From assembly GCA_945867815.1 (NCBI GenBank), contig CAMBIX010000006.1:48688-112687 (forward strand): DNA of 64,000 bases, in the 5' to 3' direction. The notes beneath the pieces were generated by a model. That model was not told the DNA's origin. It was given only the letters and a program-made list of their open reading frames with translations, and did not search any database. The stretch is from an uncultured Veillonellaceae bacterium (GTDB lineage Bacteria > Bacillota > Negativicutes > Veillonellales > Veillonellaceae). Both the position numbers and the translations under genes were made by a program. Every line of letters starts with the position of its first letter. Position 1 is the first letter of the stretch. Shown here one piece after another: positions 15,307-27,479 of the stretch.

Positions 15307-15456
15307 TTATAATCTCGTCAAAATAAGCTTATTAAATCTATGATGCAAAGAGGCGAGCCTTTGCTTCTCGTTAAAGAGCCTTACGAAGTATCAGCTCGCG
15401 AGAGAAGCAAAGGCTCACCTCTTATCCCATCTAAATAATATGTGACGAGATTATAA
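15307..15456. repeat. 150-bp palindromic element (MITE-like) with hairpin A1 inside
   Basis: The ends are perfect 14-bp terminal inverted repeats (15307-15320 and 15443-15456), and most of the interior also pairs imperfectly, so the whole element can form one long hairpin. Its centre (15348-15423) is hairpin family A: a 21-bp stem with one mismatch capped by the conserved loop at 15370-15401. The right end abuts the T-run of the 6S RNA gene. No coding capacity. Origin as a mobile repeat is inferred. Confidence 0.7.
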
Positions 15457-15634
15457 AAATCCCCACCATGCCGTTATAATATCGCGCCTTGATCCTGCAA
15501 GGCCAAGTGGGTGCCCTCCTTATGACATTGCTTACATATTACATGCCTCACGCCATCATAAGAGTTCCAGGCTCCCTGATTTAAAGTGTTAGCTCAAAAC
15601 TGCGATACCTCACGCACACAGCAGGGGTTTTCTT
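15457..15634 (-). ncRNA. ssrS: 6S RNA
   Basis: Regulatory RNA that mimics an open promoter and binds sigma-70-type RNA polymerase. Evidence: a strong promoter predicts a start near 15634 and a transcript of about 178 nt, the right size. The ends pair through CCCC near the 5' end and GGGG before a terminal T-run, with TATCGC/GCGATA further in. A large asymmetric bubble follows, with a short CCTTG/CAAGG hairpin on its 3' side, and an apical arm includes CTTATGA/TCATAAG. The position between aspS and rarA matches Bacillus subtilis bsrA (between aspS and yrvM). No ORF competes. The 3' end is approximate. Confidence 0.75.
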
Positions 15635-15640
15635 GCTATT

Positions 15641-15669
15641 ATAATAGCATTTATTACCTACTCAGTCAA
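15641..15669 (-). promoter_or_regulatory. Promoter of 6S RNA
   Basis: On the minus strand TTGACT (15664-15669), 17-nt spacer, TATTAT (15641-15646); a TATAAT also overlaps at 15638-15643. It starts right after the aspS terminator. Confidence 0.7.
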
Positions 15670-15672
15670 CGT

Positions 15673-15710
15673 AAAAAGGCGGTTACCACTAGGGTTCAAC
15701 CGCCTTTTAC
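15673..15710 (-). terminator. Intrinsic terminator after aspS
   Basis: Eleven-bp stem (15674-15684 with 15698-15708), 13-nt loop, ending in a run of T on the minus strand. Ends the recJ-aspS unit. Confidence 0.85.
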
Positions 15711-15740
15711 AAGCATTCACTTACCTTCAATAAGTAAACC

Positions 15741-17546
15741 TTATACTAACTTTTCTTTTGGATTATCTACCTTAATATGTAATTCTCTCAACTGTTTTGG
15801 TGCGACTTCCGATGGTGCCTGACACATCAAATCAGATGCACTCTGTGTCTTAGGAAAGGCAATAACATCACGAATAGAATTACGCTTAGCCATAAGCATA
15901 ACCAAACGGTCTAGACCAAAGGCACACCCTCCATGTGGAGGTGCCCCAAACTTAAAGGCATCTAACATAAAGCCAAACTTAGCTCGGCTTTCTTCTTCTG
16001 TAAGCCCAATCGCCTTAAATACCTTTTCCTGTACATCTGACTGGTAGATACGCATACTGCCACCACCAATTTCAACGCCATTCAAAACCATATCATAAGC
16101 AATGGCCTTAACAGATGCTGGATCACTTTCTAACTTATCCAAATCTTCTTCTCGTGGCATAGTAAACGGATGATGCATAGCTACATAACGTTTTTCTTCT
16201 TCGCTATATTCAAACATAGGGAAGTCTGTTACCCAAGTAAAGGCCAACTTATTTTCATCAATCATGTTCATGCGGCGAGCCATTTCTAAACGAAGTTCAC
16301 CTAAAGCACGCGTAACAACAGCTGGTTTATCAGCAATCATCAACAACAAGTCCCCTGGCTGGGCATTCATAGCCTTGCCGATATTACGAATCGTATCTTC
16401 ACCTAAGAACTTCATAATCTGAGACTTAATGCTGCCGTCTTCATTAAAGCAAGCCCAAGCAAGCCCTTTTGCACCAAACTGCCCAACATAATCAACAAGA
16501 TCATCTAATTCACGACGAGGAATACCTGCATCGCCTGGTACGATAATCCCTTTAACAACCCCGCCTTTTTCAATAACGGAACGGAATACCTTAAATTCTG
16601 TATCTTTAACAAATTCAGTAACATTACTAAATTCCATACCAAAACGCAAATCCGGTTTGTCACTGCCATACTTGTCCATAGCTTCATCCCATGTAATACG
16701 AGGCATTGGTACTGGCGTTTCCACACCCATAGTTGTCTTGAATACATGGTGAATCATATTTTCCAACATGCTAAGCATTTGTTCTTGGTCAACAAAGCTC
16801 ATTTCAAGGTCCATCTGAGTAAATTCTGGCTGACGGTCTGCACGCAAGTCTTCATCACGGAAGCAGCGTACAATCTGGAAATACTTTTCATAACCAGCCA
16901 CCATTAAAATTTGTTTGAAAATCTGTGGTGATTGAGGTAAGGCATAAAAAGCACCGGCATTAACACGAGATGGTACTAAATAGTCACGAGCCCCTTCTGG
17001 TGTACTCTTTGTTAGCATTGGTGTCTCGATTTCAAGGAAGTCATGAGAATCGAAATAATCGCGCATAGCCTTCGTTACCTTATGACGAAGAATTAAATTC
17101 TTCTGCATTTCCGGACGACGTAAGTCTAAATACCGATATTTTAAACGGATATTTTCATCAACATCGATATTATCCTGAATATAGAAAGGTGGTGTTTTAG
17201 CTGCATTCAATACACGCAATTCATCGCAATATACTTCATAATGACCTGTTGCTAAATTTGGATTAATCGCTTCTTGGTCACGTTTAGATACTTTACCACG
17301 AACGCAAAGTACATATTCATTACGTACATCTTCTGCCTTATGAAAGGAATCCATATCATGGTCTGGAGAAGCTACTACTTGTACAACACCTGAACGATCA
17401 CGCAAATCAATAAATATCAATCCACCATGATCTCGACGCCGTTCCACCCAGCCGCAGAGGACAACCTCTTTGCCTACCTCCGCTTCACTAATGGTGCCGC
17501 AGTTATTTGTACGCTGCAAGCCTTTCATTGTTTCCATTCTTGTCAT
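15741..17546 (-). CDS. aspS: Aspartyl-tRNA synthetase
   Basis: Class II aminoacyl-tRNA synthetase of bacterial type (601 aa). An N-terminal OB-fold anticodon-binding domain (VVLCGWVERRRDHGGLIFIDLRD) is followed by motif 2 (CFRDEDLRADRQPEFTQMD), a GAD insertion domain in the middle (about 290-420) and motif 3 (GCAFGLDRLVMLM) near 535. No T-box leader precedes it; it overlaps the hisS stop by 4 nt (ATGA), so expression comes from the upstream operon. Many bacteria of this group lack AsnRS and use a non-discriminating AspRS with GatCAB; that cannot be decided here. Confidence 0.97.
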   Translation of the reverse strand: MTRMETMKGLQRTNNCGTISEAEVGKEVVLCGWVERRRDHGGLIFIDLRDRSGVVQVVASPDHDMDSFHKAEDVRNEYVLCVRGKVSKRDQEAINPNLATGHYEVYCDELRVLNAAKTPPFYIQDNIDVDENIRLKYRYLDLRRPEMQKNLILRHKVTKAMRDYFDSHDFLEIETPMLTKSTPEGARDYLVPSRVNAGAFYALPQSPQIFKQILMVAGYEKYFQIVRCFRDEDLRADRQPEFTQMDLEMSFVDQEQMLSMLENMIHHVFKTTMGVETPVPMPRITWDEAMDKYGSDKPDLRFGMEFSNVTEFVKDTEFKVFRSVIEKGGVVKGIIVPGDAGIPRRELDDLVDYVGQFGAKGLAWACFNEDGSIKSQIMKFLGEDTIRNIGKAMNAQPGDLLLMIADKPAVVTRALGELRLEMARRMNMIDENKLAFTWVTDFPMFEYSEEEKRYVAMHHPFTMPREEDLDKLESDPASVKAIAYDMVLNGVEIGGGSMRIYQSDVQEKVFKAIGLTEEESRAKFGFMLDAFKFGAPPHGGCAFGLDRLVMLMAKRNSIRDVIAFPKTQSASDLMCQAPSEVAPKQLRELHIKVDNPKEKLV

Positions 17547-18814
17547 CCTTTCACTAACGAACTAATTTTATCAATTACATCGGCCAAGGCGATTGTTTCT
17601 TGTTCACTCGTATCCATAAAACGTAATACGGCTTCTCCCCGCTGTAATTCGTCATCACCCACTATAATAACATATTTTGCATGAATTTTGTTAGCATGTT
17701 TTAATTGGCTCTTCATGCTCTTATTTTCTACATCCATAGCTACTTGGCAGTTCATACTGCGTAAGGCCGTTACCATGGCAAATGCTTTCTGCCGTGCAGC
17801 TTCACCTAGAGCCACAATATAAGCCTTTTTTTCTTCTTCTGGTTTAGGCAATAGGTCTTGTTTTTCAAGTGCTAACAAGACACGTTCCATACCCATAGCA
17901 AAGCCAATAGCCGGCGTATGTGGTCCCCCTAACTGTTCCACTAAGCCATCATAACGACCGCCACCAGCAATCGCGCTTTGTGCGCCCAATGGAGTATACT
18001 GCACTTCAAAAGCCGTCTTTGTATAATAATCAAGGCCACGTACCAAACGCGGATTAATAACAAAAGGCACCTTAGCAATAGTCAAGTATTTTTTTACAGT
18101 TTCAAAATGATCATGACAATCTTCACAAAGATTTTCATGTATTTCTGGTGCCCCTATGGACAACTTCTTACAAGTTTCATTCTTACAATCCAAGATACGA
18201 AGCGGATTTTTATACAAACGATTTTGACAATCTTCACACAATTCTTCTTTTTTCGGTTCAAAGAAGGTAATTAATTTTTCGCGATAAGCTGGCCGGCAAT
18301 GAGGACAGCCTACAGAATTCACTTCTACATTTAAATCAGCCAATCCTAAGCTCTGGAAGAACTGAACAATCATCGTAATCATTTCCGCATCCGTTACAGC
18401 CGACTGCGAACCTAACACTTCTGCCCCAAACTGATGAAACTCACGATAACGGCCTGCTTGTGGTTTATCATGACGGAACATAGACCCTATATAGAACCAC
18501 TTAGTTAAGGTTTCCTGTCCATAAATCTTATTTTCTAGGTAAGCCCGCACAGCTGATGCCGTATTTTCCGGACGCAAAGTAAAGGTCTTATCCTTATCAT
18601 CACCAGTAGGGAAGGTGTACATTTCCTTCTGTACCACATCCGTTGTTTCCCCAATGCCACGCAAAAACAACCGCGTATCTTCAAAAATTGGCGTGCGAAT
18701 CTCCTGAAAACCATAGGTAGCAGCCAATTGCCGCATCTTCTTTTCCAAAGCTTGCCAATACCCAACAGTACTTGGCAAAATATCCTGTGTTCCTCTTGGA
18801 CGTTGTATAGCCAT
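17543..18814 (-). CDS. hisS: Histidyl-tRNA synthetase
   Basis: Class II synthetase charging tRNA-His. The 423-aa protein begins MAIQRPRGTQDILP; motif 2 region FRHDKPQAGRYREFHQFG, the histidine-binding RGLDYYTKTAFEV, GGGRYDGL, and motif 3 IGFAMGMERVLLAL are all present, followed by the C-terminal anticodon domain. I place the start at the ATG at 18814 (GGGAGG 7 nt upstream) rather than the TTG at 18829, which lies inside that Shine-Dalgarno. A cysteine-rich insertion (CPHCRPAYREK, CEDCQNRLYKN, CEDCHDHFE) is present, as in several Firmicutes. It begins 2 nt after hemZ. Confidence 0.97.
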   Translation of the reverse strand: MAIQRPRGTQDILPSTVGYWQALEKKMRQLAATYGFQEIRTPIFEDTRLFLRGIGETTDVVQKEMYTFPTGDDKDKTFTLRPENTASAVRAYLENKIYGQETLTKWFYIGSMFRHDKPQAGRYREFHQFGAEVLGSQSAVTDAEMITMIVQFFQSLGLADLNVEVNSVGCPHCRPAYREKLITFFEPKKEELCEDCQNRLYKNPLRILDCKNETCKKLSIGAPEIHENLCEDCHDHFETVKKYLTIAKVPFVINPRLVRGLDYYTKTAFEVQYTPLGAQSAIAGGGRYDGLVEQLGGPHTPAIGFAMGMERVLLALEKQDLLPKPEEEKKAYIVALGEAARQKAFAMVTALRSMNCQVAMDVENKSMKSQLKHANKIHAKYVIIVGDDELQRGEAVLRFMDTSEQETIALADVIDKISSLVKG

Positions 18815-18816
18815 TA

Positions 18817-20265
18817 TCATTCCTCCCAAAACGTTTGGCTCTGCTTAGCCCGTTTAGCCAGCAAAGTCCCTATAGTATCAATATATGTATCTACATCCTT
18901 AGGCATATACATTTTTTGCTGCCGGTAATCTGGTGCCCGCATCCATTTGGATGAACTACCTGGTCCCATAGACAATAAAGGCTGCCGTTCTTCCATAATA
19001 TGAATATTATAGCGACAAACAGCACCTGGCCGTGTATAACCAATGTTTTCTAAGTGTCCACGCATATATTGCTGTCGATATACATAATACGGTACATAGC
19101 CTAGTTTATGCAAGTAGTCTCTCATAAAGGTTGTCATGATTTGCACCTCTGATTCATCGGGCAAGTCCCGCCTCAAAGGGCTTGTATATAAAAGACTACC
19201 CTTCTTTAAGGTCAACGTATGAACGGTTACATTATCGGGCAATAAATTACCTATATGCTGTGCATTTTCCTTCATAGCTGCCATAGATTGGCCCGGCAGA
19301 CCAGCAATAAAGTCCATATTTATCTGAAAGTCTGTCTGTTTTCGTACCTTTTTATAGATTGCAAGAATGTCACTTGCCCTATGCCCTCGCCCTATCGCCC
19401 GTAGAATAAAGTCCTGCATAGTTTGGGGATTTAAACTTATACGGGTCACACCAGCCCTAACCATAGCCTGTAACTTAGCCTCTGTTATTGAATCCGGTCG
19501 GCCAGCTTCCACAGTGAATTCACACGACTCTTGATTAATCAGCAATTGTTTCATAGCCACTAACCAATCAGTAAAATCACTATCAGAAAGAACAGTTGGT
19601 GTACCACCACCCAAATATAAGGCATCCACCTGCAAATCATATTGTCTAAGGAGCCCTTGCATATGCCCTATATCCTGCTTATAAGTCTGCAAGAAAGTAG
19701 ATAAACGCAAGTAATCTCCTATAAGACCATAAGGAAAGGAACAATAAAGACAGCGAGTTTGGCAAAAAGGTATCCCTCCATAGAGACTAACTTGTCTATC
19801 ATTTTTCTGACTAATCAATAAATAGGGCCGCTGTAAAATAGCAATTTTTTCCAGCAAAGCAAGCTTTTCCTGACTGACCTCATATTGCTGGCCTATGGTC
19901 TCTCTAGCGGCCTGACTTGAACCTAAGTCATCCCACTTCTTATGAAAGAGCTTTGTCGGCCGCACACCAACCAAACTTCCCCAAGACCCCAAAGGCGATA
20001 GACCTTGTTCTTGACGCAAAAACTTTAATAAGCTTTTACCTATGGTCTGCCGCCCCTGCGGCGTATTATTTCCTTTTAACTGAAGCTGATTTTTACCTAT
20101 CAACTTCACAAGCAAAGCAAGGTTGTCTCCCCCTAAGGTTTCTCCCAAAAGCTCTATGTCAGCCCCACCCTTAACAGCGAAAAGGCCGGCAGCCGCACAA
20201 TGATGTGCCACTACCGAGCCTAATGCCAAGGGACCTACATAGGAATAGGTTTCTATCTTATGCAT
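18817..20265 (-). CDS. hemZ: Coproporphyrinogen dehydrogenase HemZ-type radical SAM protein
   Basis: Oxygen-independent coproporphyrinogen III oxidase-like radical-SAM protein of the HemZ branch (482 aa). An N-terminal ~150-residue extension typical of HemZ precedes the cluster motif CQTRCLYCSFPYG near residue 168 and GGGTPT. RISLNPQTMQDFILRAIGR and the HemN-type DFIAGLPGQ follow. No other heme genes are in view. It overlaps the fur stop by 8 nt, so it is translationally coupled to the Fur-family regulator; iron control of a heme-related enzyme would make sense. Some HemN relatives are heme chaperones, so substrate is not certain. Confidence 0.87.
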   Translation of the reverse strand: MHKIETYSYVGPLALGSVVAHHCAAAGLFAVKGGADIELLGETLGGDNLALLVKLIGKNQLQLKGNNTPQGRQTIGKSLLKFLRQEQGLSPLGSWGSLVGVRPTKLFHKKWDDLGSSQAARETIGQQYEVSQEKLALLEKIAILQRPYLLISQKNDRQVSLYGGIPFCQTRCLYCSFPYGLIGDYLRLSTFLQTYKQDIGHMQGLLRQYDLQVDALYLGGGTPTVLSDSDFTDWLVAMKQLLINQESCEFTVEAGRPDSITEAKLQAMVRAGVTRISLNPQTMQDFILRAIGRGHRASDILAIYKKVRKQTDFQINMDFIAGLPGQSMAAMKENAQHIGNLLPDNVTVHTLTLKKGSLLYTSPLRRDLPDESEVQIMTTFMRDYLHKLGYVPYYVYRQQYMRGHLENIGYTRPGAVCRYNIHIMEERQPLLSMGPGSSSKWMRAPDYRQQKMYMPKDVDTYIDTIGTLLAKRAKQSQTFWEE

Positions 20266-20758
20266 GGGTTTCTTGTTCCGCTTCTTTTTGTGCCTGCAAA
20301 CGTTCTTCTTCTTCCTTCATTTTTGCTTGGCAGTCACCACAATAACCATAAACCTTTAACTGATGGTCAATGGTCTTAAAATTTAATTTCTTAGCAATAA
20401 TAGATTCCAAGGTTTCCAACATATCATCTTCAAATTCTTTTACACAACCACATTTAACACAAATTAAATGATGGTGGAAATGAGAAAATTCTTCATCATT
20501 TAATTCATAACGATTGCGTCCATCACCAAAATCCAAACGTTTTAACAAATCAAGTTCTGTAAACAAGTCAAGGGTCCGATAAATAGTAGCGAGGCCAATA
20601 TCTGGTGCAACTTTTTTAACTAAGCCATACACGTCTTCCGCACTTAAATGCTTTTCTTCCGCATCAATAAAAGCCTGCAAAATCGTTTGTCGCTGCGTTG
20701 TTAATTTATATTTTTTATCTTTAATGCGTTCCTTTAATTTTTCTAACGTTGTGTTCAT
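20258..20758 (-). CDS. fur: Fur family transcriptional regulator
   Basis: Metal-dependent repressor (166 aa). The winged-helix region shows LTTQRQTILQAF and IGLATIYRTLDLFTELDLLKRL. The dimerisation/metal region has HFHHHLICVKCG and a second CGDC pair for structural zinc. Start chosen at the ATG at 20758, with GGAAAGG 9 nt upstream; an upstream GTG at 20776 sits inside that site. The C-terminus has a glutamate/glutamine-rich tail beyond the zinc site. Which metal or peroxide it senses (Fur, Zur, PerR) is not settled by sequence; the HHHLIC..CG pattern and genome position favour Fur. A Fur-box-like sequence lies at the promoter of the recJ unit that includes this gene. Confidence 0.85.
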   Translation of the reverse strand: MNTTLEKLKERIKDKKYKLTTQRQTILQAFIDAEEKHLSAEDVYGLVKKVAPDIGLATIYRTLDLFTELDLLKRLDFGDGRNRYELNDEEFSHFHHHLICVKCGCVKEFEDDMLETLESIIAKKLNFKTIDHQLKVYGYCGDCQAKMKEEEERLQAQKEAEQETHA

Positions 20759-20785
20759 GTTAGTCAACCTTTCCACTCATACATC

Positions 20786-20814
20786 CTTATAGATACTACT
20801 AACTAGATTAGCAA
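20786..20814 (-). promoter_or_regulatory. Possible internal promoter for fur
   Basis: Minus-strand TTGCTA (20809-20814), 17 nt, TATAAG (20786-20791), in the 61-bp gap between the MBL gene and fur. Reasonable but not strong. Confidence 0.4.
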
Positions 20815-20819
20815 CATAG

Positions 20820-21443
20820 TTATTGTAAAAAACCATTATATTGGCGTTCATGCCCAATAGTTGTAGCCGGCCCATGACCTGGGTAAACTAGGGTATCATC
20901 AGGCAAAGTCAATAGCTGTTCTGTTACAGATTTTACTAACTGCTCCATAGAGCCACCAACAAAATCCGTCCGGCCAACAGATTCGTAAAAGAGAGTATCG
21001 CCGACAAAAACAACGCCCTCTCCATAATAAGACACACCACCTGGTGTATGCCCTGGTGTGTCCAATACATTTAAAATAATAGAACCACAAGAAACCGTAT
21101 CACCGCCAGCCACTTCATGAATATCTACAGCATGCACCACCACATGATTTCCTGTAAATTCACTCAAATTAAGACCCACATCTGTTAAATAAGGCAAGTC
21201 TAACTTGTGTATATATAAAGGAATGTCAAAAGCCCCTTGCAAGGCTTCTACCGCCCCTATATGGTCACTGTGACCATGTGTCAACAAAATAGCCTTTGGC
21301 TTAAAGTCTTCTTTTCTTATTAAAGCAACTAATTCCTCACCATTAGCCGCGGGGTCAATGATTAAACATTCCTTTGTCTTCTCATCAGCCGCTATATAGC
21401 AATTCGTCCCCAAGGGGCCTAATGGTATACTATATACTTTCAC
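20820..21443 (-). CDS. MBL-fold metallo-hydrolase (glyoxalase II-like)
   Basis: A 207-aa metallo-beta-lactamase fold protein. The metal motif HxHxDH is HGHSDH near 56-61, further ligands are in DTPGHTPGG and GDTLFY, and the last histidine is in YPGHGPATT. N-terminal MKVYSIPLGPLGTNCYI is typical of the YqgX/YcbL-type group. Substrate unknown; relatives hydrolyse thioesters or show glyoxalase II activity. Starts at GTG with AAGGAG upstream, 12 nt after relA; MBL genes of this type often follow relA in Firmicutes. Confidence 0.88.
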   Translation of the reverse strand: MKVYSIPLGPLGTNCYIAADEKTKECLIIDPAANGEELVALIRKEDFKPKAILLTHGHSDHIGAVEALQGAFDIPLYIHKLDLPYLTDVGLNLSEFTGNHVVVHAVDIHEVAGGDTVSCGSIILNVLDTPGHTPGGVSYYGEGVVFVGDTLFYESVGRTDFVGGSMEQLVKSVTEQLLTLPDDTLVYPGHGPATTIGHERQYNGFLQ

Positions 21444-21455
21444 TAAAACCGCTCC

Positions 21456-23687
21456 TTACGCCCGCTGTACCGTATATATATCACGAATACGACGCAGTTT
21501 AGTCATAATAAAATCTAATTGTGATAAGTCTCTAATATCAATCACTAACGAAATGACAGCATTTTTCGTATCTTCATCAACCTTGGCATTAATATTTTCA
21601 ATATTAATCTTCAATTCCGACAAGGTGCTCATAATATTCATGAGTATACCACCTCGATCATAGGCCACAATTTCCACACTAACTGGGAAGGTTTCTGTTG
21701 ATTCAATATCCCAAGCCACTTCAATCATACGCTTCATATCATCTGGCGTATGCCCTAAGGACTTACAATCTGACCGATGAATGGAAACCCCGCGACCTCG
21801 TGTAATATAACCAACGATATCATCGCCAGGCACCGGATTACAACACTTAGCCATCCGCACCATAACACCAGATTCACCTCTAACTAAAATGCCTGTGCCT
21901 GCCCTTTTCTTATTGGGATTCGGACTTTTCTGTTTTAACTTATCTAAGAGGACTAAGGTATCCTTCTGCGAAGTTTGTTTTTGTTCTTCCCGTTTTTCTA
22001 TATCAATTAAACGAAGAAGCACCGCATTCACAGTCAAACCGCCAAAACCAACAGCGGCCAACATTTCATTTACATTTCCAGCGTTTAAAGCCTTTGCTAC
22101 TTGTTCCAGTCGTTCCGTTTTAGATAAAGCCTTCCAATCATAATTTAAACGTTTCGCTTCTTTTTCTAATACGTCGCGACCTTTTTCAACGTTTTCTTCC
22201 TTGTTTTCTCTTTTAAACCAATTACGTATCTTGGTGCGGCTTTCAGATGAACCAACCATATTAAGCCAATCCAAGCTTGGTTTAGCATTTTTAGAGGTAA
22301 TAATCTCTACGCGATCCCCATTCTGCAAGGTATAGTCGAGAGGTACAATCTTACCATTAACCTTAGCACCTACGCACTTATTACCTACATCCGTATGAAC
22401 ACGATAGGCAAAATCCAAAGGCACTGACCCCTTAGGCAGCTTCATAACATCACCACGCGGGGTAAAAACAAAGACTTCACTAGCAAAAATATCTAACTTA
22501 AGCGCATTCACTAACTCTTTAGGATTATTGGGATCCTGCCATTCCAGCATATTACGGAGCCAAGCCACCTTACTATCAAAATCCTTATCTTGCCCCTTAT
22601 TACCTTCTTTATAACGCCAATGAGCCGCTACCCCATATTCAGAGACACGGTGCATATCCCACGTACGTATCTGAATTTCTACAGGATGACCTTGCGTACC
22701 AATAACCGTTGTATGAAGCGATTGATACATATTGGATTTAGGCATAGCAATATAATCTTTAAACCGATGAGGTAAGGGCTTCCAAATACTATGGGCAATA
22801 CCTAAAACGGTATAGCATTGCGGTATAGTATCCACAATAACCCGTACAGCATATAAGTCATAGATCTGTGACAAATCACGATTGTCTTTTTTCATCTTTT
22901 TATAGATACTGTAAAAGTGCTTTGGCCGCCCCTTTACATCCGCCTTTATGCCGGCTTCGTCTAAGGCCTTCTTAAGTTGAGCCATTGTATCATTAACAAT
23001 TTCCTCACGGGCCTTACGCTTTTCCTTCATCTGCTCAACCAAATCATAATATTTCTCTGGTTCCAAATAACGGAAAGATAAGTCTTCTAATTCCCATTTA
23101 ATGTTAAAAATCCCTAACCGATGAGCTAAGGGCGCATAAATCTCTAACGTTTCCTTAGCAATACGCTTTTGCTTATCACTGCGCACATGCTTTAAGGTTC
23201 GCATATTATGTAAACGGTCAGCTAGTTTGATAACGACAACCCGTACATCCTTAGCCATAGCCAGAATCATCTTACGATAATTCTCCATTTGTTGGTCTTC
23301 TTTTGTTTGATAGTGGAACTGATTTAATTTCGTTACCCCATCCACTAAAAAAGCAACCGTTTCGCCAAATTCCTTACGAATATCTTCTAATGTATAAGTT
23401 GTATCTTCTACTACATCATGTAAAAGGCCTGCCTCAATGGTCACAGCATCAATTTGCAATTCTGCCAAAGTGGTGGCTACCGCTAAGGGATGAATAATGT
23501 AGGGCTCACCGGAAGCTCGCTTTTGTTCCTTATGTGCCTTATCAGCTAACTCATAAGCTTCTTCAACCTTAGCTAAGTCATCATCCGTTAAATAGGCCTT
23601 TACCGCCTTCCAAAAAGCAACCAACTTTTCTGCCTTAGTGTCTTGATGATTCTCAACTAATACACTACCTTCTTTATTTTCGCCCAT
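21456..23687 (-). CDS. relA: Bifunctional (p)ppGpp synthetase/hydrolase (RSH)
   Basis: Long RelA/SpoT homologue (743 aa) that makes and degrades (p)ppGpp. The HD hydrolase domain is intact (AGLLHDVVEDT near 88 and RLHNMRTL), so hydrolysis is likely. The synthetase domain (about 240-350) has RPKHFYSIYKKM, IYDLYAVRVIVD and YQSLHTTVIG. TGS (VFVFTPRGDVMKLPKGSVPLDFAYRVHTDVG), a helical/zinc-finger region with CCNPVPGDDIVGY, and a C-terminal ACT domain follow. Excellent AAGGAGG before the ATG, overlapping the recJ stop (TAATG). Grouping with hisS/aspS ties stringent control to tRNA charging in one unit. Confidence 0.97.
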   Translation of the reverse strand: MGENKEGSVLVENHQDTKAEKLVAFWKAVKAYLTDDDLAKVEEAYELADKAHKEQKRASGEPYIIHPLAVATTLAELQIDAVTIEAGLLHDVVEDTTYTLEDIRKEFGETVAFLVDGVTKLNQFHYQTKEDQQMENYRKMILAMAKDVRVVVIKLADRLHNMRTLKHVRSDKQKRIAKETLEIYAPLAHRLGIFNIKWELEDLSFRYLEPEKYYDLVEQMKEKRKAREEIVNDTMAQLKKALDEAGIKADVKGRPKHFYSIYKKMKKDNRDLSQIYDLYAVRVIVDTIPQCYTVLGIAHSIWKPLPHRFKDYIAMPKSNMYQSLHTTVIGTQGHPVEIQIRTWDMHRVSEYGVAAHWRYKEGNKGQDKDFDSKVAWLRNMLEWQDPNNPKELVNALKLDIFASEVFVFTPRGDVMKLPKGSVPLDFAYRVHTDVGNKCVGAKVNGKIVPLDYTLQNGDRVEIITSKNAKPSLDWLNMVGSSESRTKIRNWFKRENKEENVEKGRDVLEKEAKRLNYDWKALSKTERLEQVAKALNAGNVNEMLAAVGFGGLTVNAVLLRLIDIEKREEQKQTSQKDTLVLLDKLKQKSPNPNKKRAGTGILVRGESGVMVRMAKCCNPVPGDDIVGYITRGRGVSIHRSDCKSLGHTPDDMKRMIEVAWDIESTETFPVSVEIVAYDRGGILMNIMSTLSELKINIENINAKVDEDTKNAVISLVIDIRDLSQLDFIMTKLRRIRDIYTVQRA

Positions 23688-25702
23688 TATCCCACCTCCT
23701 TCTGGCTATACTTCATATAGGTAACCGACGTAATTAAATCTAACTTGCCAACCGGTTGCTGCCACGTATAAGAAGCAACACCGCTTGCATTTAAGCTTTT
23801 ACTTAAAAGCCCTAATTCTTCAAATACTTGTAGCCCCAACATGGTCTCACGTCGTGTCATATCCATAGGCTTATCCCGCAATAGTTCATTAACAATAATA
23901 TATTGTGGCACCGTCATCTGCCGAAACAAACGATGCACCACCAGATATAGGCATCTTAATTTTTCGGCTGTTAAAAAAGCTGATTCTAACTGACTTTGTC
24001 GTATATCAATGACAACAAGTTGTGGACTAACGACGCCTTGCCATTCATTTTTTTGTAAAGTAAATACAACATCCACGCGGTCACCTTCAAAGAATTGTTT
24101 AATAAAATCCTCTTGCTGCCAAGCTACCGCCGTTAGTACTTCCTCTTCATGACCCGTATCCGTTAAATCAAAAATAAGCTTGCAATGCTTTTTCTGTGCC
24201 CCCATTAAATAAATAGAAGAAATAAGTAAATCCTTGCTCATAAAAACAGGCGTTCGATTACCTATACCATAAGGGGCTAAAGCAGCTAATTCCTCAATAA
24301 CAGGCAGCGCCGCCTCCTCTACTGGAATGACTTCATCAATGCGAATTAAAGGTTGATATACTTCTTCTGCCAAATGGGTCTGACAATAATCATTCACATG
24401 TTTACGAAAAGCAGCAATCTGTGAGGACTCTAGACTTAAGCCAGCTGCCTGGGCATGACCACCAAACTGTATTAAAAGGGAGGAAGCATCCGCTAGCATA
24501 TCATACATATTGCAGCCTTCAATACTCCGGCAAGATCCCTTACCTAAGCCATCATTACTAAGACTAATAACAATCGTTGGCTTATAAAATTCTTCTACCA
24601 AACGAGAAGCTACAATACCAATAACCCCAGGATGCCAATTTTCACCAGCTACCACAATGCACCACTGATTATCTTCTAAATAAGCTAATACAGACTGTCG
24701 CGCCTGTGCAACTATATCACGTTCAATCGCCTGTCGCTCTTCATTCGTCTTTTGTAATTCGTTCGCAATCGCTTGCCGCCGCTGGTCATCATTTGTGGTC
24801 AATAATTCAACACCTCGCGCCGCATGGGTCACGCGCCCCGCTGCATTTAAACGAGGTGCTATGCCAAAACCAATCTGCCCTGTCGCTATGGTCTTATCTG
24901 TAAGTCCAATCTCATCAATAAGAGCCTTTATCCCCCTATTAGGATTGGTATTCATACGCGTCAAACCTTCTTTTACAAGAAAGCGATTTTCTCCTATTAG
25001 AGGTACCATATCAGCTACAGTTCCTAAGGCCACAATATCTACATCCTCTTGATAGGGCTCTTGCTTATAAGTCTGCCATAAGGCTTGACACAACTTAAAT
25101 GCCACACCGACACCGGCTAAATTTTTATCTGGATAGGTACACCCAGGCTGCTTAGGATTAATGACAGCCACAGCTGGCGGCACCTTCTCTGGCGATGTAT
25201 GATGATCCGTTACAATAAGCGGTAAACAGTCCTTAACCGCATCAACAATATCATAAGAAGTAATACCACAGTCAACCGTAATAACGAGGTCAGTTCCATC
25301 ATTAGCTAGATGTTGCAAGGCCTCTTCATTAAGACCATAGCCTTCGCTCTGTCGTTCTGGAATATAATAACTGACCGATGCCCCTAAGGCCTCTAAACAA
25401 CGATATAAGGTAGAAGTAGCTGTAATCCCATCTACATCATAATCCCCATAAATGACAATATGACCTTGATTATCAATTACCTTCTTAATAAAAGCAACCG
25501 CTTCTGCCATACCCTTTAATAAAAACGGGTCCAATAAGTCATCCCACGTAGGATGTAAAAAATGCCTTACGTCTTCAAAATCACTTACCTGACGATTCAC
25601 AAGCAGCCGTGCCAATAAGGGCGATATACCAAAGTGCTCGACTAAGGCCTCTTCCGCTTCTGGATTACCTTCTTCTACCAACCATCGCTTACCTTGTTTC
25701 AT
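23687..25702 (-). CDS. recJ: Single-stranded DNA exonuclease RecJ
   Basis: 5'-3' ssDNA exonuclease of recombination and mismatch repair (671 aa). DHH domain motifs: GDYDVDGITAT, VITVDCGITSYD, VTDHHTSPEKVPPA; DHHA1 has GGHAQAAGLSLE. A C-terminal extension of about 120 aa past the OB region is seen in Firmicutes RecJ. The start is the second of two adjacent ATGs (25702), 6 nt from AGGAGG; a longer frame reaching 25750 has no suitable Shine-Dalgarno. First gene of the unit running to aspS; its promoter and a Fur-box-like site are at 25760-25810. Confidence 0.95.
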   Translation of the reverse strand: MKQGKRWLVEEGNPEAEEALVEHFGISPLLARLLVNRQVSDFEDVRHFLHPTWDDLLDPFLLKGMAEAVAFIKKVIDNQGHIVIYGDYDVDGITATSTLYRCLEALGASVSYYIPERQSEGYGLNEEALQHLANDGTDLVITVDCGITSYDIVDAVKDCLPLIVTDHHTSPEKVPPAVAVINPKQPGCTYPDKNLAGVGVAFKLCQALWQTYKQEPYQEDVDIVALGTVADMVPLIGENRFLVKEGLTRMNTNPNRGIKALIDEIGLTDKTIATGQIGFGIAPRLNAAGRVTHAARGVELLTTNDDQRRQAIANELQKTNEERQAIERDIVAQARQSVLAYLEDNQWCIVVAGENWHPGVIGIVASRLVEEFYKPTIVISLSNDGLGKGSCRSIEGCNMYDMLADASSLLIQFGGHAQAAGLSLESSQIAAFRKHVNDYCQTHLAEEVYQPLIRIDEVIPVEEAALPVIEELAALAPYGIGNRTPVFMSKDLLISSIYLMGAQKKHCKLIFDLTDTGHEEEVLTAVAWQQEDFIKQFFEGDRVDVVFTLQKNEWQGVVSPQLVVIDIRQSQLESAFLTAEKLRCLYLVVHRLFRQMTVPQYIIVNELLRDKPMDMTRRETMLGLQVFEELGLLSKSLNASGVASYTWQQPVGKLDLITSVTYMKYSQKEVG

Positions 25703-25759
25703 CATACACCTCCTTTCCCACTCGAAATACAACCTATAAAACTCTATCAATTCTTATAT

Positions 25760-25777
25760 ATTATCATTATCATTTTA
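25760..25777 (-). promoter_or_regulatory. Fur-box-like operator before recJ
   Basis: On the minus strand two tandem GATAAT hexamers (25760-25771) are preceded by AAAAT; about 14 of 19 positions match the classical Fur box. It covers the predicted transcription start just downstream of the -10. The fur gene is in the same unit, so autoregulation is plausible. The region is AT-rich, so chance is possible. Confidence 0.45.
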
Positions 25778-25782
25778 TATTT

Positions 25783-25810
25783 ATTATACACTAGATTACC
25801 TAAGCGTCAA
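25783..25810 (-). promoter_or_regulatory. Promoter of the recJ-aspS unit
   Basis: Minus-strand TTGACG (25805-25810), 16-nt spacer, TATAAT (25783-25788). Predicted start near 25776 gives a leader of about 75 nt to the recJ ATG. Confidence 0.65.
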
Positions 25811-25850
25811 AGAGAAATTTTATCATTTTCTCTCCCCAATTTTTGTTTTT

Positions 25851-25924
25851 CTTGCTTATTATATAAAAGCAAGAAGGACCTATATTGTCTCGTTAAAGAG
25901 CCTTGCGAAGCACCAGCCCTTCTT
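25851..25924. repeat. Hairpin family A, truncated copy (A2)
   Basis: Shares with copy A3 about 75 bp of left flank, left arm and cap (about 25844-25916), but the right arm expected to pair with 25878-25890 is missing; only the outermost AAGAAGG/CCTTCTT (25871-25877, 25918-25924) still pairs. A separate small stem CTTGCTT/AAGCAAG (25851-25857, 25867-25873) overlaps it. Intergenic, between hydG and recJ. Confidence 0.7.
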
Positions 25925-25968
25925 CCCTCCTAATTTCCGTTTTTTCTTGCTTATTATATAAAAAAGTA

Positions 25969-26039
25969 AAAAGGACCTACATTATCTCGTCAAAGAGCCT
26001 TGCGATAGCACCAGCTCGCGAGAGATAATGTAGGTCCTT
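25969..26039. repeat. Hairpin family A, intact copy (A3), likely hydG 3' structure
   Basis: A perfect 18-bp stem (25971-25988 with 26022-26039) capped by the conserved 33-nt loop (25989-26021). The cap is nearly identical to copy A1 at 15370-15401, but the outer stem is a different sequence. On the minus strand it starts 21 nt after the hydG stop and is followed by T-rich sequence, so it may terminate or stabilise the hydG mRNA. Confidence 0.75.
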
Positions 26040-26060: not shown

Positions 26061-27479
26061 TTAAAAACGGAAATCTCGTTCTCCATGTTCCATTTGCTGA
26101 ATATATTCATGGGCCATTTGTTTTACTTTTTGATTCTTAATTTCTTCTAACTGTTCCTTAATAACAGCTTCCCCTGTTTTACGCGTCTTATCCGATGCAT
26201 AATCCAATAAATATTCATTTAAAGTCATTAACGCATTAGGCTGACAGCAGTTAGAAATCTCACCACTCTTAGCTAACGGCATAAAGCGGTCCCCTGTCCG
26301 TCCAGCTCGATAACAAGCGGTACAGAAACTCGGTACATAACCAAGATCTAAAATCCATTCAACGATTTCATCTAAGGTACGACAATCGCTGCGATCGAAC
26401 TGAGCCGAATTATCTTCTGGCAACTCTTCCTTAGCATAGCCGCCAACACTTGTCCGAGAAGCCCCACTAATCTGCGATATCCCCAAAGCCAAGCCACGTT
26501 CACGCATACGCTGGCTTTCACGAGTCGACATAATCATTCCCGTATACGGTGTAGATACGCGAATCAAGGCTACAATTTTTTCAAAAATATCATCTGGTAC
26601 CGCATTACTGAAGTCACCTACTTCAATATCATCGGCTGGACAAATACGAGGTACACTAATCGTATGTGGACCAACGCCAAACTTAGCTTCCAAATGTTCC
26701 GCATGCATAAGCAGGCCGACAAAATCATACTTATAATGTTCCAAACCGTAAAGAACACCAATACCTACATCATCAATACCACCCTGCATAGCTCGGTCCA
26801 TGGCTTCCGTATGATAAGCATAATTACTCTTAGGACCTGTTGGATGAAGCGATTCATAGTTTTTCTTATTATACGTTTCTTGGAACAAGGTATACGTACC
26901 AATACCTGCTTCATGCAACTTCTTATAATCTTCTACTTCACAGGCCGCAATATTAACATTAACGCGACGAATTTCACCATGTTTGTTTTTAATGCTATAA
27001 ATCGTCTTTATAGAGTCCAAAATATAATCAAGGGGATTATTTAATGGATCTTCACCTGATTCAATAACAATTCGCTTATGCCCCATAGCTTCCAAGGCCA
27101 TAACTTCCTGACGAATCTGATCTTGTGTTAATTTTTTACGTTTAATATGACGGTTCTTAGAATGATAAGGGCAATATACACAACCATTAATACAATAATT
27201 AGATAAATATAAGGGAGCAAATAAAACAACACGGTCACCATAAATTTTGCGCTTAATTTCAATGGCTAGATTAAAGAGCTTTTCCTTATATTCAGGCAAA
27301 TCACACACTAAAAGCACAGCAGCTTCCCTATGGTTTAAACCCTTATAGGTAGCGGCTTTAGCTAAAATAGAATCCAATAATTCACGATTATGCTTATTAG
27401 CTTCTGCATAAGCTAGGGTATCCATGATTTCATCATGGCTTATGAATTCTTCCGCCTTGGAAGAAGCAACATCATACAT
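26061..27479 (-). CDS. hydG: [FeFe]-hydrogenase maturase HydG (tyrosine lyase)
   Basis: Radical-SAM tyrosine lyase that makes CO and cyanide ligands for the H-cluster. The 472-aa protein has the CX3CX2C motif CINGCVYC (C96, C100, C103). Its C-terminal second cluster motif CTAC...CC fits the HydG CX2CX22C pattern that separates it from ThiH. LFQETYNKKNYESLHPTGPKSNY and GIGVLYGLEHYKYDF are also typical. Strong AAAAGGAG before the ATG. A promoter lies at 27568-27596 and a hairpin follows the gene, so it is a single-gene unit; hydE, hydF and the hydrogenase are not in this window. Confidence 0.94.
   Translation of the reverse strand: MYDVASSKAEEFISHDEIMDTLAYAEANKHNRELLDSILAKAATYKGLNHREAAVLLVCDLPEYKEKLFNLAIEIKRKIYGDRVVLFAPLYLSNYCINGCVYCPYHSKNRHIKRKKLTQDQIRQEVMALEAMGHKRIVIESGEDPLNNPLDYILDSIKTIYSIKNKHGEIRRVNVNIAACEVEDYKKLHEAGIGTYTLFQETYNKKNYESLHPTGPKSNYAYHTEAMDRAMQGGIDDVGIGVLYGLEHYKYDFVGLLMHAEHLEAKFGVGPHTISVPRICPADDIEVGDFSNAVPDDIFEKIVALIRVSTPYTGMIMSTRESQRMRERGLALGISQISGASRTSVGGYAKEELPEDNSAQFDRSDCRTLDEIVEWILDLGYVPSFCTACYRAGRTGDRFMPLAKSGEISNCCQPNALMTLNEYLLDYASDKTRKTGEAVIKEQLEEIKNQKVKQMAHEYIQQMEHGERDFRF

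What the first reader, a model, noticed from the sequence alone, without database searches (positions are those of the whole stretch)
15348..26039. Hairpin family A: conserved cap, locus-specific stems
The cap at 15370-15401 and 25989-26021 is nearly the same (GTYAAAGAGCCTTRCGA then CAGCTCGCGA), yet the outer stems of 18-21 bp are unrelated in sequence and each still pairs with its own partner arm. Ordinary terminators have no conserved cap, and dispersed repeats normally keep their stems. The pattern suggests selection for a structured RNA whose cap is recognised, or a repeat that acquires its stem from the locus. Within the cap GAGC/GCTC and CTT/AAG could nest on the minus strand. All copies lie 3' of a minus-strand gene or RNA.
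Basis: partly seen in the sequence, partly recalled or inferred. Interest (0 to 1): 0.8.

Follow-up and report, generated by a model that had tools for sequence, protein, structure and literature searches.

The report
Hairpin tips that borrow their stems
In a relative of Veillonella, dozens of gene ends carry a hairpin with the same tip but a different stem, and at about a fifth of them the DNA beyond the stem includes a reversed copy of the neighbouring gene's end, so the stems were likely made by DNA copying that folded back on itself and the hairpins are predicted to stop transcription.

Summary
The two window hairpins belong to a family of about 85 copies in this genome. The tip is conserved and base-paired with covariation. 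The stems are nearly perfectly paired and locus-specific beyond about 10 bp. 77 of 85 lie 3' of a gene in one fixed orientation. New finding: the palindrome does not stop at the stem. In 19 of 85 copies the outer flanks are also inverted repeats (controls: 65 of 1500 and 11 of 510), and in 17 of these 19 they include coding bases of the upstream gene. In sister genera other tips sit in similar inverted flanks. One case is polarised: V. sp. R32 and V. intestinalis have hairpin plus inverted copy, three related species have neither, and the two share the tip but not the stem. So the stem comes from the locus, by inverted duplication. Fold-back DNA synthesis is inferred. Terminator function is predicted; the U-tract signal is weak. 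Recognition of the tip is untested. Neither a Y1 transposase nor an RVT_1 reverse transcriptase matched in the genome.

The parts
15348..15423 (-). Capped hairpin 1 in RNA sense (minus strand): arms 15348-15369 and 15402-15423, downstream of 6S RNA
   Evidence: (80.9 bits)
15370..15401 (-). Conserved cap of hairpin 1 (three-base-loop form)
15307..15320 (.). Outer inverted repeat, arm lying on the next gene's side (partner 15443-15456, 14 of 14 matching)
   Evidence: score 28
15443..15456 (.). Outer inverted repeat, arm lying at the 3' end of 6S RNA
15456..15630 (-). 6S RNA, the transcript upstream of hairpin 1
   Evidence: RF00013, 72.9 bits
25971..26039 (-). Capped hairpin 2 in RNA sense: arms 25971-25988 and 26022-26039, 3' of the gene at 26061-27479
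   Evidence: 81.1 bits
25989..26021 (-). Conserved cap of hairpin 2 (four-base-loop form)
26063..26074 (-). End of the upstream gene (last base of the stop codon plus coding bases) that reappears inverted at 25933-25944
   Evidence: (12 of 12 matching, score 24)
25933..25944 (.). Inverted copy of the upstream gene's end, on the far side of the hairpin
25874..25917 (-). Truncated tandem copy: one arm (25874-25891) and most of the cap, partner arm missing
   Evidence: L009
26061..27479 (-). Upstream gene, radical SAM plus BATS domains; the 3' regions of its 27 orthologues in sister genera lack this cap

Best explanation
Each copy is a conserved hairpin tip at the centre of a palindrome whose arms differ from place to place; at 19 of 85 places the DNA beyond the stem is an inverted repeat, in 17 of them including the coding end of the upstream gene, so the stem was likely made by fold-back (self-primed, template-switching) DNA synthesis and is predicted to serve as a transcription terminator. 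Inferred steps: a strand ending in the folded tip primes synthesis back along its own flank and makes the second arm plus a further stretch of inverted copy; the strand end then rejoins the chromosome. Selection would then keep about 20 bp of stem and the tip, a U-tract would evolve just outside the stem, and the rest of the inverted copy would decay. Repeated events would rewrite stems in place under the same tip. How a tip reaches a new gene is not explained.
For: Inverted flanks beyond the stem: score >21 in 19 of 85 copies against 65 of 1500 mispaired flanks and 11 of 510 shifted centres; >26 in 11 of 85 against 15 of 1500 and 0 of 510 (Fisher p 2e-10 to 2e-8; copies in clusters are not fully independent). 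In 17 of 19 the two arms start at distances from the stem that differ by at most 12 nt (the test allowed 30), in 18 of 19 they end within 90 nt of it, and 17 of 19 include coding bases of the upstream gene. Mismatches in those coding columns are not concentrated at third codon positions (13, 8 and 5 at positions 1, 2 and 3 of 285 columns), as expected if the non-coding copy is what drifts. Polarised case: the promoter-side flank of V. sp. R32 matches three related species directly (75-83) and not inverted (17; shuffled 99% 26-27), but matches inverted in R32 itself (80) and in V. intestinalis (39); R32 and V. intestinalis share the tip and the distal copy but have different stems. A homologous apex in genus g2 lies 22 nt 3' of a gene in L063, with inverted flanks (42; shuffled maximum 19). 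Terminator reading: 77 of 85 have the upstream gene in sense, median distance 37 nt; many sister orthologues of two such genes end in plain terminator-like hairpins.
Against: 66 of 85 copies show no significant outer inverted repeat; decay is assumed. The U-tract is weak: mean 3.52 T in the 8 nt after the stem against 3.27 A in the mirror position, and most copies of the long-tip subtype lack a clear one (5 of 16). The innermost stem pairs resemble a family consensus, so not all of the stem is local. Near-perfect pairing is not special: plain terminators found by my search are equally clean. In g2 three of four homologues have no outer inverted repeat by the same test. Three sister hairpins with a similar cap motif also lack it (L286, L260, L153). 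One g2 orthologue without a cap of this kind, L261, also scores above the permutation 99% level for an inverted gene-end match (27 against 25). Pairing at G-U and A-C is about equal (10 and 7 of 448), so no strand preference is seen.
Confidence: 0.6

Rival explanations
1. The cap is a small mobile palindrome (MITE-like) that inserts into the loops of palindromes or terminators that were already there; the inverted flanks existed before the cap came.
For: Copies lie between the larger reading frames, mostly at gene ends. Many sister orthologues do end in plain hairpins.
Against: Plain terminators rarely show the long inverted flanks: 0 of 12 in this genome reach the 99% level, 1 of 39 in sister loci scores above 26. 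The three species without the hairpin at the V. sp. R32 site also lack the inverted copy. No Y1 transposase found here; other transposase families were not searched.
Confidence: 0.15
2. An ordinary structured RNA element: the cap is bound by a protein, and stems diverged from one ancestral hairpin by compensatory mutation under selection for pairing.
For: Cap helices covary; cap-proximal stem positions keep a consensus; some neighbouring copies have related stems with matched changes.
Against: It does not predict inverted copies of coding ends beyond the hairpin, nor different stems under one cap at the same site in sister species.
Confidence: 0.15
3. REP-like element moved by a RAYT (Y1) transposase, or a reverse-transcribed mRNA 3' end.
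For: Palindromic, high copy, oriented to genes.
Against: No Y1_Tnp and no RVT_1 match in this genome; in REPs the palindrome itself is the conserved part (recalled), here mainly the tip is.
Confidence: 0.04
4. Artefact: inverted chimeras from amplification or assembly.
For: Amplification chimeras can produce inverted joins (recalled).
Against: The inverted copies have drifted (428 of 516 columns identical), the cap is shared by about 85 places, and comparable structures occur in separately deposited Veillonella records.
Confidence: 0.01

Closest known systems
Template-switch mutations that create and maintain RNA hairpins (PMC8794818; passages read)
   Same: Inverted copying about a loop makes a perfectly paired stem at once, keeps the loop, and can rewrite a stem. 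That paper discusses hairpin-loop priming of DNA synthesis on the opposite stem half.
   Different: In the passages read, the cases concern microRNA and rRNA stems. Here the same short tip recurs at about 85 places of one genome, with inverted copies of gene ends around some of them.
REP elements / REPINs with RAYT transposases (listings only: PMC3116915, PMC3733652, PMC12306157)
   Same: Short palindromic repeats outside genes, high copy number in single genomes.
   Different: Stem not conserved, tip conserved; no Y1_Tnp found in the genome.
MITEs and stem-loop repeat families (PMC2267715, passages read)
   Same: Non-coding repeats folding into hairpins; tandem clusters and truncated copies.
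   Different: Conservation fades within about 10 bp of the cap in the main subtype.
Intrinsic (Rho-independent) terminators
   Same: Strong hairpin shortly 3' of genes, some U-rich tails.
   Different: Conserved structured tip of about 31-35 nt instead of a short loop; embedded, at some sites, in a longer palindrome.

Membership tests
Intrinsic terminator | Stable hairpin just 3' of a gene in the transcript's sense | tested here: met
   77 of 85 with a sense gene upstream, median 37 nt, 51 of the 77 within 60 nt
Intrinsic terminator | U-tract directly after the stem | tested here: inconclusive
   37 of 85 with at least 6 T in 10 positions against 26 of 85 for the mirror control
Intrinsic terminator | Transcript 3' ends map to it | not testable with these tools
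   no RNA data
REP / RAYT | Y1 transposase in the genome | tested here: not met
   PF01797: 0 matches in G000, matches in 13 of 28 family genomes
REP / RAYT | Conserved palindrome stem | tested here: not met
   main subtype: pairwise identity near background beyond about 10 bp; long-tip subtype keeps more of its stem
MITE | Conserved terminal inverted repeats bounding a unit | tested here: not met
   main subtype: beyond about 10 bp only the U-rich end of the stem stands out (position 18 on the 3' side, 0.69). The long-tip subtype is conserved to about 25 bp, so for it the test is open
MITE | Target-site duplication | not tested
   element ends are undefined in the main subtype
Known RNA family (Rfam 15) | Match to a covariance model | tested here: not met
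   window: only 6S at gathering scores; three loci at E up to 1: one chance-level match elsewhere
Template-switch (fold-back) inverted duplication | Inverted copy of adjacent sequence, absent at the orthologous site of relatives | tested here: met
   R32 site against three species, a sister-genus cap; for the present genome shown through coding overlap only
Template-switch (fold-back) inverted duplication | Event observed between close strains | not testable with these tools
   one genome of this genus is held

The most novel reading that the evidence does not exclude
A new kind of genomic repeat whose only heritable unit is a hairpin tip: wherever the tip lands it turns the neighbouring DNA into a palindrome by fold-back copying, so each copy manufactures its own stem (and with it a new terminator) from the host locus, and can rewrite that stem later. 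Different Veillonella genera would carry different tips running on the same principle.
Probability: 0.35. Interest if true: 0.88.

Novelty: new variant of a known kind. Interest (0 to 1): 0.75.

Why it matters
Perfectly paired stems that differ between copies while the loop stays fixed are normally read as RNA covariation under selection. Here there is an alternative source, inverted copying of local DNA, with a visible footprint beyond the hairpin. If right, it gives bacteria a one-step way to make new terminators, shows that covariation can come from a mutational mechanism, and makes the fold-back route testable with strain comparisons and plasmid assays.

Tried and rejected
Strand choice from wobble pairs: G-U and A-C are about equal, so uninformative. 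Perfect pairing as evidence for DNA-level correction: plain terminators are equally perfect under my finder, which itself penalises mismatches; dropped. Cap more conserved than outer arms as proof of selection: 570 of 640 against 428 of 516 columns, but the outer figure is selected upward and each cap was compared with the best of seven consensus forms, so not decisive. Tests of the outer inverted repeat, in order: local alignment of 90-nt flanks (20 of 71 above the 95% and 15 of 71 above the 99% control level); anchored X-drop extension (5 of 71 above each level), which fails at the interruption just outside the stem; banded local alignment (18 and 11 of 71; on 85). I cite the last. Y1 transposase and reverse transcriptase: no match. 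Rfam: none for the cap. De novo 7-mer enrichment in loops of even 400-kb samples from two sister genomes and this one showed no high-copy cap, in this genome's sample either, so that scan is insensitive. Exact cap search: 0 in genome contigs (the window's own genome may be left out there), 0 in viral contigs. Literature: seven counted searches; none of the listed titles and abstract openings describes stem-borrowing hairpins. PMC8794818 and PMC2267715 were read in passages; all others were seen as listings.

Rows dropped: alignment A1 used 23 of 30 loci; A2 (model R1) 14 of those 23; A4 28 and A5 (model R2) 11 copies; A3 (48 rows) was set aside as misregistered. In A4, 13 of 28 rows are a base out of register in the outer stem columns, so only its cap pairs are cited. 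In A4 and A5 one of five covariation measures (further pair types) does not exceed the shuffles (103 and 346 of 500). The CGA[CT] motif in sister caps was chosen after seeing the scores; of the 10 motif-bearing hairpins with strong flanks, 5 come from one gene in five genomes (two positions), 2 from one orthologous site, and 2 lie within 400 bp of each other. The permutation control contains orthologous duplicates and was not used; only its absolute scores are cited.

Full report
What is there. The window is part of a 1.97 Mb draft genome. It is the only genome of its genus held and shares its family with named Veillonella species. Both hairpins are as described. A model built from 14 copies finds 71 places in the genome at E<=0.1; a second model from 11 long-tip copies adds 14, 85 in all, the weakest of them uncertain. 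32 of 85 have another copy within 300 bp, and truncated copies ending near the tip occur on either side.

Anatomy. In the 14-copy alignment 94.2% of cells pair and 13 of 21 pairs change on both sides (covariation 0.634 against 0.198 shuffled). In the 28-copy cap alignment the middle pair of P3 switches A-U to G-C (19 and 7); in the long-tip subtype two P2 pairs change on both sides. P1 is 95% Watson-Crick over its innermost 14 pairs (425 of 448, 32 copies). 69 distinct 12-mers occur among 72 arms of at least 14 nt. Conservation of the stem fades within about 10 bp in the main subtype and reaches about 25 bp in the long-tip subtype.

Place. 77 of 85 have the nearest upstream reading frame in sense (p 3e-15 if copies were independent); 51 of these 77 are within 60 nt of the stop codon. 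The gene calls are longest-ORF heuristics. Among sister orthologues of the 472-aa gene many end in plain terminator-like hairpins, while five of the six in genus g2 run within about 100 nt into a next reading frame without one. Of the 486-aa glutamine-synthetase-domain gene, the sister 3' regions that I printed end in plain hairpins or, in six g3 genomes, in another cap. The regions after 6S RNA show no such cap in 27 sister genomes.

The unexpected part. Beyond P1 the flanks continue, at some copies, as an imperfect inverted repeat about the tip. In a banded local alignment, 19 of 85 copies exceed the 95% level of mispaired flanks (65 of 1500; 11 of 510 for shifted centres), and 11 exceed a score of 26 (15 of 1500; 0 of 510). 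In 17 of the 19 the two arms start at distances differing by at most 12 nt (30 were allowed), and in 18 of 19 they end within 90 nt of the stem. In 17 of the 19 the gene-side arm includes coding bases, at least 11 in 14 of them. There the coding side should be the source and the far side the copy. Mismatches are not concentrated at third codon positions (13, 8, 5). In the window, the coding end 26063-26074 reappears inverted at 25933-25944, and the 6S copy has a 14-bp outer pair at 15307-15320 and 15443-15456.

Controls. Plain terminators: 0 of 12 above the 99% level here, 3 of 39 above 21 and 1 of 39 above 26 in sister loci. In even samples of 400 kb, hairpins of any kind with scores above 26: 0 of 49 (G017), 5 of 67 (G003), 1 of 63 (this genome). 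Four of the five in G003 lie in two places that hold capped hairpins of a different type; the one in this genome also has a long structured loop. A direct test of gene ends against downstream DNA gave 30 for this genome's 486-aa gene, equal to the highest permuted value, and 24 for the 472-aa gene (permuted 99% 23); among 27 sister orthologues of the first gene three exceed the permuted 99% level of 25 (35, 27, 26), two of them at capped hairpins and one, L261, not.

Sister genera. The exact cap is essentially confined to this genome. Four g2 genomes hold one recognisable homologue each, at 26-28 bits, in which the apex is kept and P2 is replaced by a different pairing sequence; one has inverted flanks (42 against a shuffled maximum of 19), three do not. 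Other caps occur in g3 and g4: of 66 distinct hairpins with loops of 24-44 nt in 1.3 Mb of sister sequence, 11 have inverted flanks above 24, and 10 of these 11 carry a CGA[CT] motif, against 11 of the other 55 (motif chosen afterwards, loci not independent). At the glutamine-synthetase-domain gene, six g3 genomes have the same cap type with three different stems, at two different distances from the stop codon, and V. magna has a plain hairpin.

A polarised case. Upstream of the 472-aa gene, V. sp. R32 and V. intestinalis carry a capped hairpin (of a sister-genus type) preceded by an inverted copy of the promoter-side sequence. V. sp. KGMB01456, V. ratti and V. seminalis have the promoter-side sequence in direct orientation (75-83) but no inverted copy (17; shuffled 99% 26-27) and no hairpin. 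R32 and V. intestinalis share the cap and the distal inverted copy but have different stems. The other two species in that alignment, V. caviae and V. magna, are not informative because the promoter side does not align (direct scores 20-24). So hairpin and inverted copy appear together, and the stem has changed under the same cap at one site.

Mechanism. Shown: inverted repeats of flanking DNA around a conserved tip, polarised as duplication at one sister site and by coding overlap here. Inferred: fold-back priming. Template switching that makes and rewrites hairpins has been described (PMC8794818, passages read). Not explained: how the tip reaches new genes. No Y1 transposase or RVT_1 reverse transcriptase matched; other enzymes were not searched.

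Function. Terminator is the best guess from position and from plain terminators in sister orthologues. The U-tract is weak overall, and many long-tip copies lack one. Whether the tip is recognised by a protein or merely copied is open.

Verdict. Real, more than chance, and more interesting than stated: the locus-specific stem has an identifiable local origin.

Noticed in passing
window 15456-15630 (-): 6S RNA (Rfam RF00013); in several sister genomes, chiefly g2 and g3, a plain GC-rich terminator-like hairpin follows 6S at once; here the nearest strong hairpin is the capped one about 33 nt on.
   Followed up: partly
L314 314-765 (G003, genus g4): Three palindromes within about 450 bp, two of them capped, with inverted flanks scoring 49-55 and short TGGGGCCC-like ends; may be a compound repeat.
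   Followed up: partly
L328 14382-14448 (this genome, contig C3): A hairpin with a different 41-nt structured loop, GCGACTT..TCTCGGA, resembling the sister-genus caps, with inverted flanks (score 39).
   Followed up: no
L205, L078, L065, L206 (this genome): Half copies: one arm plus about half the cap, ending close to the tip.
   Followed up: partly
cap, strand opposite to the transcript: Apex loops read C(GNNA)G or C(GNA)G in many copies; such loops are recalled as very stable in single-stranded DNA. Not tested.
   Followed up: no
L263 (V. sp. R32 by coordinates, 486-aa gene): Tandem second copy of the g3-type cap about 135 nt on, with one outer arm shortened.
   Followed up: no
G003, G012, G015, G031, G036, G037 and others: Y1 transposase matches are frequent in genus g4 (up to 14 in a genome) and none was found in this genome.
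   Followed up: no
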